Assembly: GCA_937981915.1 (NCBI GenBank)
Contig: CALJMD010000046.1
Span: 1 to 43,217, forward strand
Origin: an uncultured Acidimicrobiales bacterium
Lineage (GTDB): Bacteria; Actinomycetota; Acidimicrobiia; Acidimicrobiales; SZUA-35
Length of the DNA stretch: 43,217 bases
Direction: 5' to 3'
Shown: one piece after another, positions 1 to 27,940 of the stretch
Layout of the letters: each line of letters begins with the position of its first letter
Numbering within the stretch: the stretch's first letter is position 1
The notes under the pieces: model-generated
Databases searched by the model: none
What the model saw: only the letters and a program-made list of their open reading frames with translations
What the model was told of the DNA's origin: nothing
Program-made: the position numbers and the translations under genes

Positions 1-162
1 GGCCGCTCAGAATCGTATGAACGTGCACAGGTCGCAGCCGTTGATTTGAGTTCGCCGTTTGAGCAGGTCAAGTTCCGAGACGGTTCGGGGGTTGCCCTAC
101 CACTTGAGGGAAGGTCTCTCGTTCAAGCCGGTATTCTGCTCAGTCCTCGGAGAGACTCGTAG
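1..162 (+). CDS. C-terminal fragment of an unidentified CDS (5' end outside window)
   Basis: Frame 1 is open from base 1 to a TAG at 160-162 (GRSESYERAQVAAVDLSSPFEQVKFRDGSGVALPLEGRSLVQAGILLSPRRDS*); tail-to-tail overlap with the next gene. Confidence 0.45.
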   Translation, partial: GRSESYERAQVAAVDLSSPFEQVKFRDGSGVALPLEGRSLVQAGILLSPRRDS

Positions 163-1015
163 CGATTGGACGACTAGTGTCCTGGGTCCATTCTGACCAG
201 GACCCGGCGTACAGCACGCCACCGTCAATACCGGCGACTCGAGCTGCCAGTAGATTCTGGCAAGCGGTTACCCCGGAGCCGCATGTGGCTATCCAGGGCT
301 GCTCACCGTCAATTCCGAGAGACTCGAACTGAGCTCGCAACTGGTCCGGCGGAAGGAAACGAAGGCTTCGGTCCAGATTCTTCTGCCATGGATGCGATCG
401 TGCACCCGGCATGTGTCCTGGCGGTTGATCAACCGGATTCGGTTGTCCCTGGAAGCGTTCCGGTGACCTGGCGTCAACTATGGGTGCCGAAGAGTCGGCG
501 ACCACGGCTGAAACCTGGTTGGCCGTCGCCAAACGACCGGATGGCCAAGAGGCGTCGATTGACGTAGCTTGGCTGACGGATTCGATCGCGTTATTGATCG
601 TGGTGGGCGTCGATGCCGCCGTTGCCTCGAGGTTTCCAGGCCACGCTCCCACTCCCCCATCCAACACGGCGGCATCAAAGCCGAGCGAGTCAAGCATCCA
701 CCACAGCCGGGCTGCAATGCCGCCACCAACGTCGTCGTAGCAAACAACCGGGAGCGAAGTCAGGCCTTTGGCCTCAAGCATCGCCAGGAACTGCGGCGCG
801 GGTGGAAGTGGATGTCGGCCACTTCTGCCCGGTGTATCGGATATGTCGGCGTCAAGATCGACGAACACGGCTCCAGGGAGGTGGCCGGCATGGTAGTCAC
901 CAACCTTCGGTCCATCTTGCAGCGACCATCTCACATCGGCCAACGCGACATGACCATGGTTTTGCGCAAGCCACTCGCCGGTGACTAACGGACCAGGCAA
1001 CGCAGGTTGCGGCAC
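140..1015 (-). CDS. Rhodanese-like thiosulfate/3-mercaptopyruvate sulfurtransferase (two rhodanese domains)
   Basis: 291 aa; VALADVRW...HLPGAVFVDLD, DGGVGAW, then IVDARSPERFQG...GHMPGA and CGSGVTAC active-site loop. Confidence 0.93.
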   Translation of the reverse strand: MPQPALPGPLVTGEWLAQNHGHVALADVRWSLQDGPKVGDYHAGHLPGAVFVDLDADISDTPGRSGRHPLPPAPQFLAMLEAKGLTSLPVVCYDDVGGGIAARLWWMLDSLGFDAAVLDGGVGAWPGNLEATAASTPTTINNAIESVSQATSIDASWPSGRLATANQVSAVVADSSAPIVDARSPERFQGQPNPVDQPPGHMPGARSHPWQKNLDRSLRFLPPDQLRAQFESLGIDGEQPWIATCGSGVTACQNLLAARVAGIDGGVLYAGSWSEWTQDTSRPIATSLSED

Positions 1016-1028
1016 GGCGTATCGAGTC

Positions 1029-2279
1029 CTAGGGGGAAGCGACCGTAAAGGTCAACGTGGCTTGACGACCGCCGTCGTCCTCAGACTCATATATATGTAC
1101 GTGTTGGCCGTCGGCGCCGAACACCGCAGTGATTACGTTGACCCCGAACGCCGCATCTTCGGGGTTCAGGTTCTTCGCCGCTCCAGCGGTCAGGGTCACG
1201 ACCTGAGGGCCGACCGTGGTGCCGTCGCTCCGAGGCTCATGCGTGACTGTTCCCGACACGCCTGCGCTCAGTGCGATTCCCATGATGTCGTTGTGCCACG
1301 GGCCTTCGTGACCTTCGACCGCAAGACGCCCCCCGCCAGGACAATCGATGGTTCCGGTGAGCAGAAACGACTTGCGAACATCGATGGTGCACGTCGCCGG
1401 CAATGTCACGCCGGACGGCGTTGGCGTTGTGTCCGTCGTCTCCCCACCGGTTCCGTCGGTCGAATCATCAGCCGCGGCTCCGGTTGAATTTCCGGGTGCC
1501 GTCGTTGACGTAGAAGGTAACAGCGCCGTCGACCCATCATCGCCGTCGCTGTCCGATCCATTGCTATTGCCGTCAGCAGTGCCATCGACATTTGTGCCGG
1601 CCAGCTCGGAGTCGCCTTCAAGCTCGGCTCTGGCATCGAGCTCGGGGCCAGCGGGTGCTTCCGAACCCAGCGAAGATGCTACGTCGTCCAGCTCCACCGT
1701 CTCGCTTCCGCCACCGAGTCCACGAATAATCAGGATGAGAGGAATGAGCGCGATCAAGAAGACCGCAGCCAGCATCGCCCAACCCAATCGAAGGTCGCTG
1801 GATTGCACTTGTTGGCGGATCGGAACGTGCCTGTGCAGCTCGCCACTGACCTGCGGATACTGGGTGGACAAGAAGTTTACGATCTCGTCCCGGGCTTCCA
1901 TTGGACGCCCACTCGGATAGCGAATCTGGGTAACCGGCGGGGCTTCGAGGCGATCCACGGTGTCTTCAACCAGTAGACAGACCTTGCCGCGCGACAGCCG
2001 GGCTTCGAGAAACCCTGCGGCGTGCAGCGTTCTCTGGATCCGATGCTCGGTGGCAGCCGCCACTGACGGGTCGGTGTCGTTCACCACGAGGACGGCCATG
2101 TCGAACTTGCTGAGCGAGACCTCAACTGGCATCGACGCGAAGGTCTGAACAGAGCAGCCCTCGGCCTCAAGAGAGTGCGCGAGCTCCTCAATGTCCTTCA
2201 TCGATCCTGTCGGCCCCATGAGGATCCGTGGATAATTGCCGCTGGCGTTCGCTAACGTCACAGTTGAGGAGTATAACAC
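1029..2279 (-). CDS. Membrane protein: N-terminal TIR-like (CAP12/PF10137-type) domain, one TM helix, Ser/Thr/Asp-rich linker, C-terminal beta-rich domain
   Basis: 416 aa; RILMGPTGSMKDIEELAHSLEAEGCSV...FDMAVLVVNDTD...RIQRTLHAAGFLEARLSRGKVCLLVED resembles the TIR-like pattern RxRxNVxFExGxFxGxLGRxxVxxL; TM WAMLAAVFLIALIPLILIIRGL. Confidence 0.5.
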   Translation of the reverse strand: MLYSSTVTLANASGNYPRILMGPTGSMKDIEELAHSLEAEGCSVQTFASMPVEVSLSKFDMAVLVVNDTDPSVAAATEHRIQRTLHAAGFLEARLSRGKVCLLVEDTVDRLEAPPVTQIRYPSGRPMEARDEIVNFLSTQYPQVSGELHRHVPIRQQVQSSDLRLGWAMLAAVFLIALIPLILIIRGLGGGSETVELDDVASSLGSEAPAGPELDARAELEGDSELAGTNVDGTADGNSNGSDSDGDDGSTALLPSTSTTAPGNSTGAAADDSTDGTGGETTDTTPTPSGVTLPATCTIDVRKSFLLTGTIDCPGGGRLAVEGHEGPWHNDIMGIALSAGVSGTVTHEPRSDGTTVGPQVVTLTAGAAKNLNPEDAAFGVNVITAVFGADGQHVHIYESEDDGGRQATLTFTVASP

Positions 2280-2508: not shown

Positions 2509-3060
2509 ATGACGGGAACAGCCCGATCAGCACAAGATGGAAGCCCGGCAGTTGCCGATGACCGAGGACTACGAGACAGCTCGCTCGTCTCCTGGCTGAC
2601 CATGGCAGTCAGCTTGCTGATTGTTGGCTTGCTGACGTGGATTACGATAAGTGCCATCCGCGGCGGGGGCGACGAGGAGAACGACGCCGGTGACGGATCA
2701 GACTCGATTGCGTCGAGCTCGGGCGAGCAGACTGCGGTCGACGAGGTTGCGGTGACTATCGGAACCGAGGGCCATCAGATTGTTGTGGCATGTTTTCTCC
2801 CGACAGCGACAAATCCTCCGCTGATCGCCTTCGCCAGCTCCGCCCCCGTCCAACTGGATCTCACTGTCGAAGCAACCCTGATTGGCAGTGATGAAGGAAG
2901 GTTCAGAACGGTTGCTACTGCCGACGACCTTCGGCCCGGCGAACAACGCCAGTCCGTTCCGCGAACTACTGAGACATCGACGGTGGTCATCGACGGCGAA
3001 GTTGTTGGATGTGAGATCCAGAGCGTTCAGGCCGACCGTCAAGTTGTCAGGTTCGGGTAG
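2509..3060 (+). CDS. Hypothetical single-TM protein
   Basis: ATG at 2509 (MTGTARSAQDG...), in frame with the longer ORF from 2236; TM WLTMAVSLLIVGLLTWITISAI. Confidence 0.65.
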   Translation: MTGTARSAQDGSPAVADDRGLRDSSLVSWLTMAVSLLIVGLLTWITISAIRGGGDEENDAGDGSDSIASSSGEQTAVDEVAVTIGTEGHQIVVACFLPTATNPPLIAFASSAPVQLDLTVEATLIGSDEGRFRTVATADDLRPGEQRQSVPRTTETSTVVIDGEVVGCEIQSVQADRQVVRFG

Positions 3061-3304: not shown

Positions 3305-4384
3305 CTACGGGACGAAAATGCCGCCGCTCAGCATTGCGAACGGCGGAATCGAGCCGTCTTGAGTTGCCGCGCTCGGCTCCACGGAGATTCGGCCGGGCGG
3401 CACGCCCACATTTTCTAACGTCGCAACCAACGAGTCGATCTTTTGGCCTTCGGAGGTCGCTGCGGAGTCACCGGAGCTACTCTCGAGGCCCGGAACAATA
3501 AGTGTGAGCCTGGCGTCAGGATAGACCGCCATTAGGGCTCCAGCGGTCTCCAGCAAGAACGCCGAAGATGAGTCCAGGGCCGCTGCGTCGTCGGCAAACA
3601 CCAACGGCTGATCGATGAACAGCACGGGGCTCGCACCGTCGACCGCCTTGTCGTTGGCATCGGCGTCGAGCTCGATGTCGTACAGCACATTTTGAGAGCC
3701 GACCAGTATCGAAGCCCGGTCGCCAAGCGCTTCTGCGGCGGATTGATCAGCCCATCTCCCCAGAATGTGCAGTTGACCGGAGGCGAACACTCCGTAGGCG
3801 TCTCGTGAACGCGCTGCGGCTTCAGTTCTATACAGGTCCATTGATGCCGCGGGCGACAACTGAGCCGTCGTCGAGTCTGTGGATGTCGACGGGTCTGTTG
3901 AGTCGTCGGCGGTGTCGGTCTCGGAGGATGCTGCGCCAGTGGTGTCCTCTGTGAGTTGACCGGACACGTCTAGGGAGTCCCCCTCCCCAAGTTGCGTTGT
4001 CTGCCCGGAGTCACCATTGACGTTGTCTTCCGGAGCGGTGCTTGCCTCAACATCGCCGGATACAGAGCTTTCGCCGCTCTGGCTGTTGAGAGCCAATGCA
4101 GCCAGACCTAGGACAACAACGGCGCCGGCTCCGAACAGTGCGGCTGCCAGACGACGCGAACCAGCCCGTTCCGGCTGATACGGCGCCAGACCATGATCGC
4201 TGTCGTCGCTCCCTGCGCTGCCCGACCTGAGTCGCGGCGCTTCGGGGTCTTGGGGCGTCGGGTCGGCCTCGACCTGATCTGTCGATTGGCGTGCTTCGCC
4301 GGCTGAGGTCTCCTGCGTCGACAGCTCAGCCGTGTCGACGACCCGGCCAATCCACGTCGGCACTCGATCCGCTGTTTCGCTCAA
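3305..4384 (-). CDS. Single-TM envelope protein with OmpA-like C-terminal domain
   Basis: 359 aa; TM LAAALFGAGAVVVLGLAALAL; C-term PLVFADDAAALDSSSAFLLETAGALMAVYPDARLTLIVPG...IDSLVATLENVGVPPGRISVEP follows the OmpA-like layout. Confidence 0.6.
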   Translation of the reverse strand: MSETADRVPTWIGRVVDTAELSTQETSAGEARQSTDQVEADPTPQDPEAPRLRSGSAGSDDSDHGLAPYQPERAGSRRLAAALFGAGAVVVLGLAALALNSQSGESSVSGDVEASTAPEDNVNGDSGQTTQLGEGDSLDVSGQLTEDTTGAASSETDTADDSTDPSTSTDSTTAQLSPAASMDLYRTEAAARSRDAYGVFASGQLHILGRWADQSAAEALGDRASILVGSQNVLYDIELDADANDKAVDGASPVLFIDQPLVFADDAAALDSSSAFLLETAGALMAVYPDARLTLIVPGLESSSGDSAATSEGQKIDSLVATLENVGVPPGRISVEPSAATQDGSIPPFAMLSGGIFVP

Positions 4385-25194: not shown

Positions 25195-25878
25195 CTAGTC
25201 GCCGGACCGTAGCGCTGTGACGTTGCCACGATACGCAGCGGGCCCATTACGGAAGGCGGCCGAGCCCGCAACCAGAACTGTCGCTCCAGCAGCGACGAGA
25301 GCTTGTGAATTCTCGGGCGTCACTCCCCCGTCCACTTCGATATCGATTGGTCGATCTTCGATCATCTGCGCCAGGCGGCGAACCTTCTCCAGCGCCGAGG
25401 GGATAAACGACTGTCCGCCGAAACCTGGATTGACCGACATGACCAGAATCAGGTCGACGCGGTCCAGAACCCACTGCACGGCTTCGGGAGGCGTGCCGGG
25501 ATTGAGCGATACGCCCGCTCGTTTGCCGAGATCACGGATTCGCTGCAGCGAGCGATCGAGGTGAGGGCCGGCTTCGGCGTGGACCGTGATGCCGTCACAG
25601 CCAGCCGCAGCGAACGACTCGAGATACGGATCCGCCGGTGCAATCATTAGATGAGCATCGAAGTAAAGGTCGGTTACTTTGCGAATCGACTCGATAATCG
25701 GGGGACCGAAGGTCATGTTCGGCACAAAGTGACCGTCCATCACGTCGAGGTGGATCCAGTCGGCGCCAGCCTGGTCCATCGCACTTACCTCGTCTCCTAG
25801 CGAGGCGAAGTCGGCGGACAAGATCGACGGCGCTATTCGAACCGGAACCTGCTCGCCTGTCAGTGCGTCAGTGGCCAT
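25195..25878 (-). CDS. rpe: Ribulose-phosphate 3-epimerase
   Basis: ATG at 25878, in frame with the longer [62 protein letters not shown]. Confidence 0.96.
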
Positions 25879-25894
25879 CTCTAAATGATAGTTG

Positions 25895-27940
25895 CTATGG
25901 GCGCCTACTCGGCACGGCGGACCACCACCCATCGTGGCTAAGGCTCGGCTGGGACCCGGGTTGTGTCGTGGTTGTTCTCGGTGGGGTACCCCGTCGCCGT
26001 TCGGCGGCCCGTTGCTGTCCGCGACGTCGACCTGGCTTGCCGTCACCTCCGAGAACGTCGTCGGAGGTTCCGTCCACGTCCTCTGGAGTCGACGTGCTCT
26101 TATCTGACGTTTCCTCGTCGTCGATGACTGGTGTCTGTGGAGCGTCATCGGCCACAGTGGTACTTGGCCCTGACTCGTCCTGGGGCGGTTGGGAATCTCC
26201 CGGCTCGCCGGGCGATGTCGTCGATGGGCCACTGCCGGGAACGTCGCTGCTCGTGGAGGGCCCGGAGACGCTACTGCTGGTCGACGACGGGGCCGATATC
26301 GGCTCGGTGGTCGGGCGCTGAGCGATGGTACTGACAGCGGAATCTGAATCTTCAAGCCCATCATCAGATGCGACGCTGGTCGTAGACGCCGTTGAATCAT
26401 CTGGGCTGCTGGTGGGAGGTGTATCGGAGCCACCTGTCGTAGCGGTGACTGTTGTCGACGTGGTTTCGTCAGCGCGCTGTTCGACGGTCGTTGGTGTGGT
26501 GGACGTGGTTGAGGTAGTAGTGGTCTGCACATCGGTCTTCAGCGTCAGCCCGGAACCAGGGCCGGAGCCACTGTCTGCGGGACCGACGGTGGGTCCGACA
26601 AAGTCGTCGGGTGCTGCGATCGTTTCGGTCCGCACCTGGAGCATGCCCCTCGACTCCGCCGTGACGACATTGCCGGCGACCGCCACGTCGGGGCTGATCG
26701 CCAGGGGATCCGCGTAGCTACTGATGCAGCTCTCCGTGCACCCGTGGATAGTGTTGTCGACAATCGTGACCTGATTGTTCGAAGGCGACCCGAAGGCCGA
26801 CGCCCAGTCGGCCGGATTGTCATCGCCATGCACCTGGATCACATGCTTGCCGGGCCAGGTTGATTGTGGGTCAACCTCGACGTTCCAAATTGTGTTGTTT
26901 CTGATTTCGGTTGGACCGTGGGCAACAGCGATGGCTTGTGCGTAATGCATGCCGTTGGAGACGTTCCAAATCTGGTTTTCCTCAACCAGATAGTTGGCCG
27001 GCCCCCAGCTGCTCCTGTTGAGGCCGAGCGAAATCGCTCCACCGTAGTTAGGTGTCAGATCATGGATGCGGTTGTGCCGGATCGAGACGTTGGTCGTGTA
27101 GTGCTTGACGTCGATCGCCTCGTTTGAGAGATCGAACAATTCGTTGTGCTCGACAGTCATGTCGTGTGAGCGATCGGTCTTGCTGAAGGTGCCTGTCCCG
27201 ATGTAGATACCTTCACCGAATTCAGACTCAACTTTGCCGGTGCGAGAGATTTTGTTGCATCGAATAGTCGTGTTTGATGAGACCTGGGCCTGGTCGTTCC
27301 AATAGGCCTGCGTGATGATGCCGGAGTGTCCCAGGTTGGAGATCGTGTTGTACTCGAAGGTGACGTGATGTGATCCCGACGATCTGGCTCCGAACATGGC
27401 ATTGCCGATCTCCAGTCCTCTGACCACGACATGCTCGAGGCGGACTACGTCGACCGCCGGCTTCCAGTTGCCCGGATCGATACCGTTGAAGCCGATGACT
27501 GGAGCTGCGCCAGCGGCGGCTTGGATGACGATCGGGCGACCCTCAGCCCCCGATCGATGGCCGTAGGCCTGGCGGTAGTGGAGCTGCTCGTATCGACCCG
27601 ACGCCAGGTTGATGGTGTCGCCGGGCATCGCAGCGCTCAACGCTGACGCAAGGTCAGTTGGGCTGGCAACGTTGCGGACGACGCCGGAACCGGTGGGGGC
27701 AACGGGGGTGTATGAGCTGCAACCATCTGGTCCGGCTGCCGGGGATGGGCCGGAGCTCATGCGAGGTAAAGCGACGATGACGGCTACGATCAGCATGCTC
27801 GCAGAAATGACCGCGGCGATTAGATGACTGGGGGGCTTCTTAGGCGAACGGGTAGCGAACAGACCCCTATTGGGGTCGTCTTCGTTGGGGGTACCCGAAT
27901 GAAACGCCACAGGCCTGGGGGCCGGAGGCATGGGGGTCAC
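25895..27940 (-). CDS. Surface protein: N-terminal TM, right-handed parallel beta-helix domain, Thr/Ser-rich stalk
   Basis: 681 aa; GTG start with [22 protein letters not shown]..., repeated N-[TI]-I strands ([53 protein letters not shown]); [13 protein letters not shown] tail. Confidence 0.82.

What the first reader, a model, noticed from the sequence alone, without database searches (positions are those of the whole stretch)
1029..2279. Membrane-anchored protein with a TIR-like (CAP12-type) domain, extracytoplasmic stalk and C-terminal beta domain
Sequence shows: the first ~140 aa carry a Rossmann-like pattern ending RIQRTLHAAGFLEARLSRGKVCLLVED, then one TM helix, a long S/T/D-rich linker and a beta-rich C-terminus. 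Established: PF10137-type TIR-like domains (CBASS/Pycsar effectors and predicted nucleotide-binding proteins) have RxRxNVxFExGxFxGxLGRxxV. Inference: here a TIR-like fold is coupled across the membrane to an external domain, an architecture I do not recognise. The usual catalytic Glu in 'FELG' reads as Ala (HAAG), suggesting a non-catalytic ligand-binding or signalling role.
Basis: partly seen in the sequence, partly recalled or inferred. Interest (0 to 1): 0.68.

Follow-up and report, generated by a model that had tools for sequence, protein, structure and literature searches.

The report
Membrane-anchored pseudo-TIR protein with outer domain
A lineage-specific bacterial membrane protein joins a disarmed immune-type (TIR) domain inside the cell to a previously undescribed small domain outside it; it is kept under strong selection next to a conserved partner gene, which points to a sensor or scaffold role rather than a toxic immune enzyme.

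Summary
The gene is real but lies on the minus strand (2279->1029; the likely true, probably leaderless, start is GTG 2261). The window protein alone matches no Pfam or NCBIfam model, but its family does: relatives exceed Pfam's cut-off for PF10137 (CAP12/Pycsar TIR), the family profile's best PDB matches are PycTIR and CAP12, and Foldseek's best hit for the AlphaFold model is TIR-STING. The NADase Glu (SfSTING E84) aligns with Ala87. Ala is fixed in a five-genome clade that also lacks the BB-loop/alphaB segment and the R78, N80 and D110 equivalents; other relatives of the genus keep Glu or Asp. The disarmed domain is under strong purifying selection (dN/dS about 0.03). One TM helix (N-in) and a fast-evolving stalk lead to a confidently predicted, two-cysteine beta domain with no PDB fold match, found only in this GTDB family. 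The gene is chromosomal and syntenic: in 12 genomes it faces a divergent one-TM, two-cysteine gene, and usually precedes a sulfurtransferase-like rhodanese. No partner cyclase was seen. Best reading: a trans-envelope receptor or scaffold with a pseudoenzyme TIR; a new variant of a known kind, function unproven.

The parts
1029..2261 (-). Most likely coding sequence, GTG start at 2261, 410 aa; the mechanical ORF starts at GTG 2279 (416 aa, numbering used in this report)
   Evidence: TATACT box 8 nt before GTG 2261 and comparison of starts in relatives
2270..2275 (-). -10-like box TATACT (leaderless transcript proposed)
   Evidence: 1 site found, 0.1 expected; TAnnnT at a similar distance in several relatives
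1845..2240 (-). Cytoplasmic TIR-like domain, residues 14-145, CAP12/PycTIR type, without BB loop/alphaB
2019..2021 (-). Codon of Ala87, at the position of the catalytic Glu (SfSTING E84)
   Evidence: Ala in window, L002, L003, L006, L007
1716..1781 (-). Single TM helix, about residues 167-188, preceded by a conserved juxtamembrane stretch (LHRHVPIRQQVQSSDLRLGW)
1410..1709 (-). Disordered S/T/D/G-rich stalk, residues 191-290, fast evolving
   Evidence: pLDDT below 50; highest dN of the four regions
1032..1409 (-). Extracytoplasmic all-beta domain, residues 291-416; Cys297/Cys313 and GPWHNEI-type and GQHVHL-type motifs conserved; unassigned fold
140..1015 (-). Downstream gene, 3-mercaptopyruvate-sulfurtransferase-like rhodanese with CGSGVTA motif; GTG 13 nt after the TIR gene's stop
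   Evidence: same order in 10 of the 11 genus genomes that show the TIR gene
2521..3060 (+). Divergent partner gene: one TM, small domain with two invariant cysteines, no Pfam match (exact start not settled)

Best explanation
A single-pass, N-in membrane protein in which a CAP12/PycTIR-type TIR domain has lost its NADase site and serves as a cytoplasmic binding or assembly module. It is tied by a TM helix and a flexible stalk to a small, probably disulphide-bonded beta domain outside, which binds an envelope component or the divergently encoded one-TM partner. Binding outside would change clustering of the TIR domains inside, or the reverse. SHOWN here: TIR homology, loss of the site residues, one TM, confidently predicted outer domain, selection, synteny and co-occurrence with the partner gene. 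INFERRED: topology, disulphide, ligand, partner binding, direction of signalling.
For: TIR homology: L012, L013 and a third protein family-wide search hits over Pfam's PF10137 cut-off; NCBIfam Cap12 model best E 2.7e-5; best PDB profile hits PycTIR 8jsj E 3.6e-5 and CAP12 7un8 E 0.057; Foldseek ranks 1-4 are TIR-STING, best E 3.8e-4; hhalign 94.8% for the Ala clade alone against at most 0.65% in 20 column shuffles. Site lost: E84->A, R78->I, N80->R, D110->A, and a 10-residue gap at the BB-loop/alphaB region; replacing the BB loop abolishes SfSTING NADase activity (PMC9402430). Kept for a function: dN/dS 0.028 in the TIR domain against 0.040 in the outer domain and 0.112 in the linker. Membrane-receptor plan. 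Not a mobile defence gene: one copy per genome except one, conserved order, no hit in phages or plasmids. Partner in all 12 genus genomes and G016, divergent and next to it in the 12 that show both.
Against: No ligand, binding partner or output is known; a signalling role is inferred from domain layout. A paralogue in G033 has TM, stalk and outer domain with a short N-terminus and no TIR, so the outer domain can work without it. More distant relatives (L014-L017) have a badly eroded TIR. Topology rests on charge and cysteine patterns only, and the flank charge difference is modest.
Confidence: 0.45

Rival explanations
1. Ligand reader: the disarmed TIR still binds NAD+, ADP-ribose or a cyclic derivative without cutting it, and reports this to the envelope (inside-out signalling).
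For: TIR ancestry; the glycine-containing turn after the first strand (GPTGS/GRSGS) is kept.
Against: R78 and N80, which in SfSTING are positioned to coordinate the substrate (PMC9402430), are both lost in the Ala clade.
Confidence: 0.17
2. Cytoplasmic anchor only: the TIR domain is a leftover that helps folding or dimerisation; the outer domain does the work, for instance as an envelope structural or redox protein together with the partner and the sulfurtransferase.
For: G033 paralogue without TIR; the outer domain is conserved even where the TIR is eroded (L014-L017); two cysteines in both outer domains.
Against: In the closest genomes the TIR domain is more constrained than the outer domain (dN 0.034 against 0.085).
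Confidence: 0.2
3. Immune regulator: a membrane-bound decoy or inhibitor that co-assembles with an active TIR NADase elsewhere in the cell, or a signal-gated effector with another output.
For: Inactive versions of enzymes are proposed as decoys or dominant-negative parts of conflict systems in multicellular bacteria (PMC7159879); G034 carries a separate, apparently soluble, Glu-bearing PF10137 protein.
Against: No defence genes, cyclase or CD-NTase recognised next to the gene; syntenic core gene; PADLOC matches only at E 0.04. No other PF10137 gene was found in most of the genus.
Confidence: 0.1
4. Active NADase effector, using Glu in the sister lineages and something else here.
For: E84 equivalent present in L008, L010, L012, L013 and Asp in L009, L011.
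Against: Window has Ala and lacks the other site residues; even the Glu-bearing relatives lack R78, and all but L013 lack N80.
Confidence: 0.05

Closest known systems
CAP12 / TIR-STING effectors of CBASS (SfSTING, PDB 7un8)
   Same: TIR-like domain homologous along its length; best Foldseek match is TIR-STING
   Different: No STING domain; TM and outer domain instead; E84, R78, N80, D110 and BB loop lost in the window clade; no CD-NTase gene recognised nearby
PycTIR effectors of Pycsar (PDB 8jsj)
   Same: Best PDB sequence-profile match (E 3.6e-5) over residues 155-291 of PycTIR
   Different: No cyclic-nucleotide-binding domain, no pyrimidine cyclase gene recognised nearby, site lost
PF10137 CAP12-PCTIR_TIR as a whole
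   Same: Relatives with Glu pass the curated cut-off
   Different: Ten other PF10137 proteins from this order have no convincing TM helix by hydropathy; the window protein itself is below any cut-off
Animal Toll-like receptors (from general knowledge)
   Same: Outer domain, one TM, cytoplasmic TIR
   Different: Reverse order (TIR at the N-terminus, outer domain at the C-terminus), no LRR, different TIR family; analogy only

Membership tests
PF10137 (CAP12-PCTIR_TIR) | Window protein scores over Pfam's gathering cut-off | tested here: not met
   no PF10137 hit
PF10137 (CAP12-PCTIR_TIR) | Homology to the family shown through intermediates | tested here: met
   (L013 35.0 bits, L012 26.3, cut-off 24.7)
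PF10137 (CAP12-PCTIR_TIR) | TIR fold, nearest to CAP12 among solved structures | tested here: met
   ranks 1-4, prob 1.00; CENP-M (Rossmann-like) at rank 5 shows limited specificity of weaker hits
Catalytic TIR NADase | Catalytic Glu (SfSTING E84) | tested here: not met
   Ala87 in window and Ala in 4 relatives
Catalytic TIR NADase | R78, N80, D110 and BB loop | tested here: not met
   I, R, A and a 10-residue gap
Catalytic TIR NADase | NAD+ cleavage | not testable with these tools
   needs an enzyme assay
CBASS / Pycsar effector | Adjacent CD-NTase or pyrimidine cyclase | tested here: not met
   Window neighbours scanned are rhodanese, membrane transporter, acyl-CoA dehydrogenase, PrsW, AAA, PhoH; order conserved
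CBASS / Pycsar effector | Signal-binding domain (STING, CNBD, SAVED) fused to TIR | tested here: not met
Transmembrane receptor layout | One TM between cytoplasmic and outer domains | tested here: met
   one TM in each of the 16 family proteins checked; topology itself inferred
Transmembrane receptor layout | Outer domain binds a ligand | not testable with these tools
   no fold match to suggest a ligand

The most novel reading that the evidence does not exclude
A bacterial trans-envelope receptor that works like a Toll-like receptor in reverse order: a new outer beta domain senses the envelope or a partner protein, and a catalytically dead CAP12-type TIR relays it by TIR-TIR assembly, i.e. 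TIR domains turned from NADase immunity to housekeeping envelope signalling.
Probability: 0.2. Interest if true: 0.8.

Novelty: new variant of a known kind. Interest (0 to 1): 0.5.

Why it matters
Well-studied bacterial CAP12/Pycsar TIR domains are NAD+-cleaving immune effectors. Here the same domain type has lost its site in a clade with a clear record of states in relatives (Glu, Asp, Ala, others), stays under strong selection, and sits in a receptor-like membrane protein. That gives a natural series for testing whether bacterial TIR domains also act as non-enzymatic signalling adaptors, as in animals. It also defines a new lineage-specific outer domain with a confident predicted structure and a likely partner gene.

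Tried and rejected
Pfam, NCBIfam and PADLOC scans of the window protein alone found nothing usable (a 22-residue PADLOC match at E 0.04 was set aside). phmmer against PDB hit only the low-complexity linker. Weak DUF4440, HrpB_C, DotU, Flu_M1 and NTPase_1 hits were rejected as chance. The outer domain gave no sequence or fold match (best Foldseek E 0.06, TM-scores below 0.4); cupin, nitrite-reductase and CBM resemblances were not accepted. Wider searches for the outer domain in class and phylum found none outside this GTDB family (the first look scores few candidates per genome, so remote ones may be missed). The two loci from the order-wide protein search (L024, L025) and the class-wide hits to the TM/linker were rejected as spurious. 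No match in phages or plasmids. PrsW, an intramembrane protease in the conserved neighbourhood, was considered as a processing enzyme but there is no evidence. Literature searches found no described protein of this layout, though the library covers open papers only. The 'Tir-like' hit in PMC11237479 is the CesT/Tir chaperone, unrelated.

Full report
OBSERVATION. The plus strand of the same interval is broken by stops in that frame. The likely start is GTG 2261: a TATACT box lies 8 nt upstream on the minus strand (one promoter-like site found, 0.1 expected in shuffles), and a TAnnnT box 8-12 nt before the start recurs in several relatives. This would be a leaderless message, common in Actinomycetota (general knowledge). 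Residue numbers below use the 416-aa form.

FAMILY. The window lies in a genome of 4.07 Mb in 484 contigs; its nearest named relatives are Acidimicrobiales MAGs. The protein search found the family in 15 of 39 genomes of the same GTDB family, including 11 of 12 genomes of the same genus. In the twelfth (G028) the partner gene is present near a contig end just where the TIR gene would lie. Outside that GTDB family no true relative was found in samples of 248 genomes of the order, about 390 of the class and 397 of the phylum; the two weak order-level loci, L024 and L025, do not contain the family's domains. It is one copy per genome except G033.

TIR DOMAIN. The window protein alone hits nothing in Pfam. 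Through its relatives the identity is clear: L013 scores 35.0 bits (E 1.6e-8) and L012 26.3 bits against PF10137, cut-off 24.7; L008 is below it at 19.3. NCBIfam's Cap12 model matches four members. The family profile's two best hits among 177,635 PDB sequences are PycTIR (8jsj, E 3.6e-5) and CAP12 (7un8, E 0.057), both over the TIR domain. The AlphaFold model from 17 sequences has block pLDDT mostly 67-93 over residues 11-140, and Foldseek puts TIR-STING at ranks 1-4 (E 3.8e-4 to 1.3e-3, prob 1.00), with SARM1 further down. TM-scores are low, in part because they are normalised by the whole multi-domain chain, and a Rossmann-like protein, CENP-M, is at rank 5, so the fold search alone would not be decisive. 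Profile-profile comparison with ten PF10137-type domains (eight from this order plus CAP12 and PycTIR) gave 94.8% for the Ala clade alone and 98.7% for the rest, against at most 0.65% in 20 column-shuffled controls.

ACTIVE SITE. In SfSTING the NADase site is described as S10, L47, R78, N80, the catalytic E84, and D110 of the other protomer, and replacing the BB loop (delta A36-K41) abolishes activity (PMC9402430). In the joint alignment E84 falls on Ala87 of the window protein. The window clade (window, L002, L003, L006, L007) has A for E84, I for R78, R for N80, A for D110 and a gap of about ten residues where BB loop and alphaB would be; the model likewise shows only a three-residue helix there. 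Glu is kept in L008, L010, L012 and L013, Asp in L009 and L011, and L014-L017 have Q, L, L and T. No family member keeps R78 and only L013 keeps N80. All PF10137 comparison sequences have Glu. The tree puts the Ala members in one supported clade (100/99); with Glu in the outgroup the simplest reading is loss at least twice, but the long branches of L014-L017 make that count unsure.

SELECTION. Between the window and L002 dN/dS is 0.028 for the TIR domain, 0.023 for juxtamembrane and TM, 0.112 for the stalk and 0.040 for the outer domain; dS is high (1.2-3), so these values are rough, but the order of dN (0.034, 0.068, 0.215, 0.085) does not depend on dS. The disarmed TIR therefore has the lowest dN of the four regions in this pair, which speaks against decay.

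MEMBRANE AND OUTER DOMAIN. Each of the 16 family proteins checked has exactly one strongly hydrophobic segment. The C-side flank is acidic; the N-side is in nearly all less so and richer in K/R, which favours N-in. The stalk is disordered (pLDDT below 50). The outer domain has two cysteines (297 and 313; present wherever that region is covered), a GPWHNEI motif and a GQHVHL-like motif. Modelled alone it reaches pLDDT 91 and pTM 0.85 as a beta-rich fold, yet it has no PDB match better than E 0.06 and no Pfam or PDB sequence match of note. In G033 a paralogue split over two contig ends carries a short N-terminus, TM, stalk and this domain, but no TIR. Ten other PF10137 proteins from the same order have no convincing TM segment.

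SURROUNDINGS. Directly downstream, on the same strand, is a gene for a two-rhodanese-domain protein with the CGSGVTA motif typical of 3-mercaptopyruvate sulfurtransferases (motif reading from general knowledge; Pfam Rhodanese E 1.9e-21, two stretches); this order holds in the window and nine other genus genomes, not in G025. The distance from stop to start is 13 nt in the window and varies elsewhere. Divergently upstream is a gene for a one-TM protein with two invariant cysteines and an LRPGE.R motif; strong matches occur in all 12 genus genomes and a weaker one in G016, divergent and adjacent wherever both genes are seen. Further out, PrsW-type protease and AAA genes are also conserved. No cyclase, CD-NTase or other defence gene was recognised in the window neighbourhood. 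The neighbours of the other genomes were compared with each other by BLAST only, not annotated one by one.

MECHANISM. The evidence supports a non-enzymatic TIR module in a trans-envelope protein. How it works is inference: the outer domain binds an envelope component or the divergent partner, and the TIR domains cluster or bind another protein inside. The alternatives (ligand reader, anchor only, immune regulator, active enzyme) are listed with their weights. The gene's synteny, near single-copy state and absence from phages and plasmids favour a housekeeping role over a mobile defence role.

NOVELTY. TIR domains, PF10137 and membrane receptors are known; this combination with a disarmed CAP12-type TIR and a new outer domain was not found in the open literature searched and is not named in Pfam, NCBIfam or PADLOC. 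I rate it a new variant of a known kind.

Noticed in passing
window 2521-3060, + strand: Divergent one-TM, two-cysteine protein without Pfam match, present in all 12 genus genomes and adjacent to the TIR gene wherever both are seen; likely functional partner.
   Followed up: partly
L023 (G033:C16) 1267-1896 and L022 (G033:C64) 2-301: Paralogue of the TIR protein with TM, stalk and outer domain but a short N-terminus and no TIR, split across two contig ends whose sequences overlap.
   Followed up: partly
window 2261-2275, - strand, and upstream regions of relatives: TAnnnT box 8-12 nt before the start codon in several family members, pointing to leaderless transcripts.
   Followed up: partly
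L013 (G031:C2) 1501-2571: The only family member that keeps both the catalytic Glu and the Asn of the NADase site; the best candidate for residual activity.
   Followed up: no
L036 685-1914 (G034:C115): Apparently soluble PF10137 protein with a Glu-bearing TIR (NVLFEAG) behind an unassigned N-terminal part, in the same genus; possible active counterpart.
   Followed up: no
L060 (G150:C28) 80-1219: PF10137 protein whose C-terminal TIR closely resembles this family (HEIGLFQGHLGFSRAIVLIEDG...GLGQIRFPSGN) but with an intact RQN..E site; a possible close outgroup.
   Followed up: partly
window 3305-4384, - strand: Another membrane-anchored protein with a Ser/Thr/Asp-rich stalk and an unassigned C-terminal domain, matched only in the two closest genomes; no Pfam match.
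   Followed up: no
window 25895-27940, - strand: Beta-helix-like N-terminal part followed by a very long S/T/P-rich tail that overlaps another long frame (25195-26532, probably ribulose-phosphate 3-epimerase with a spurious extension).
   Followed up: no
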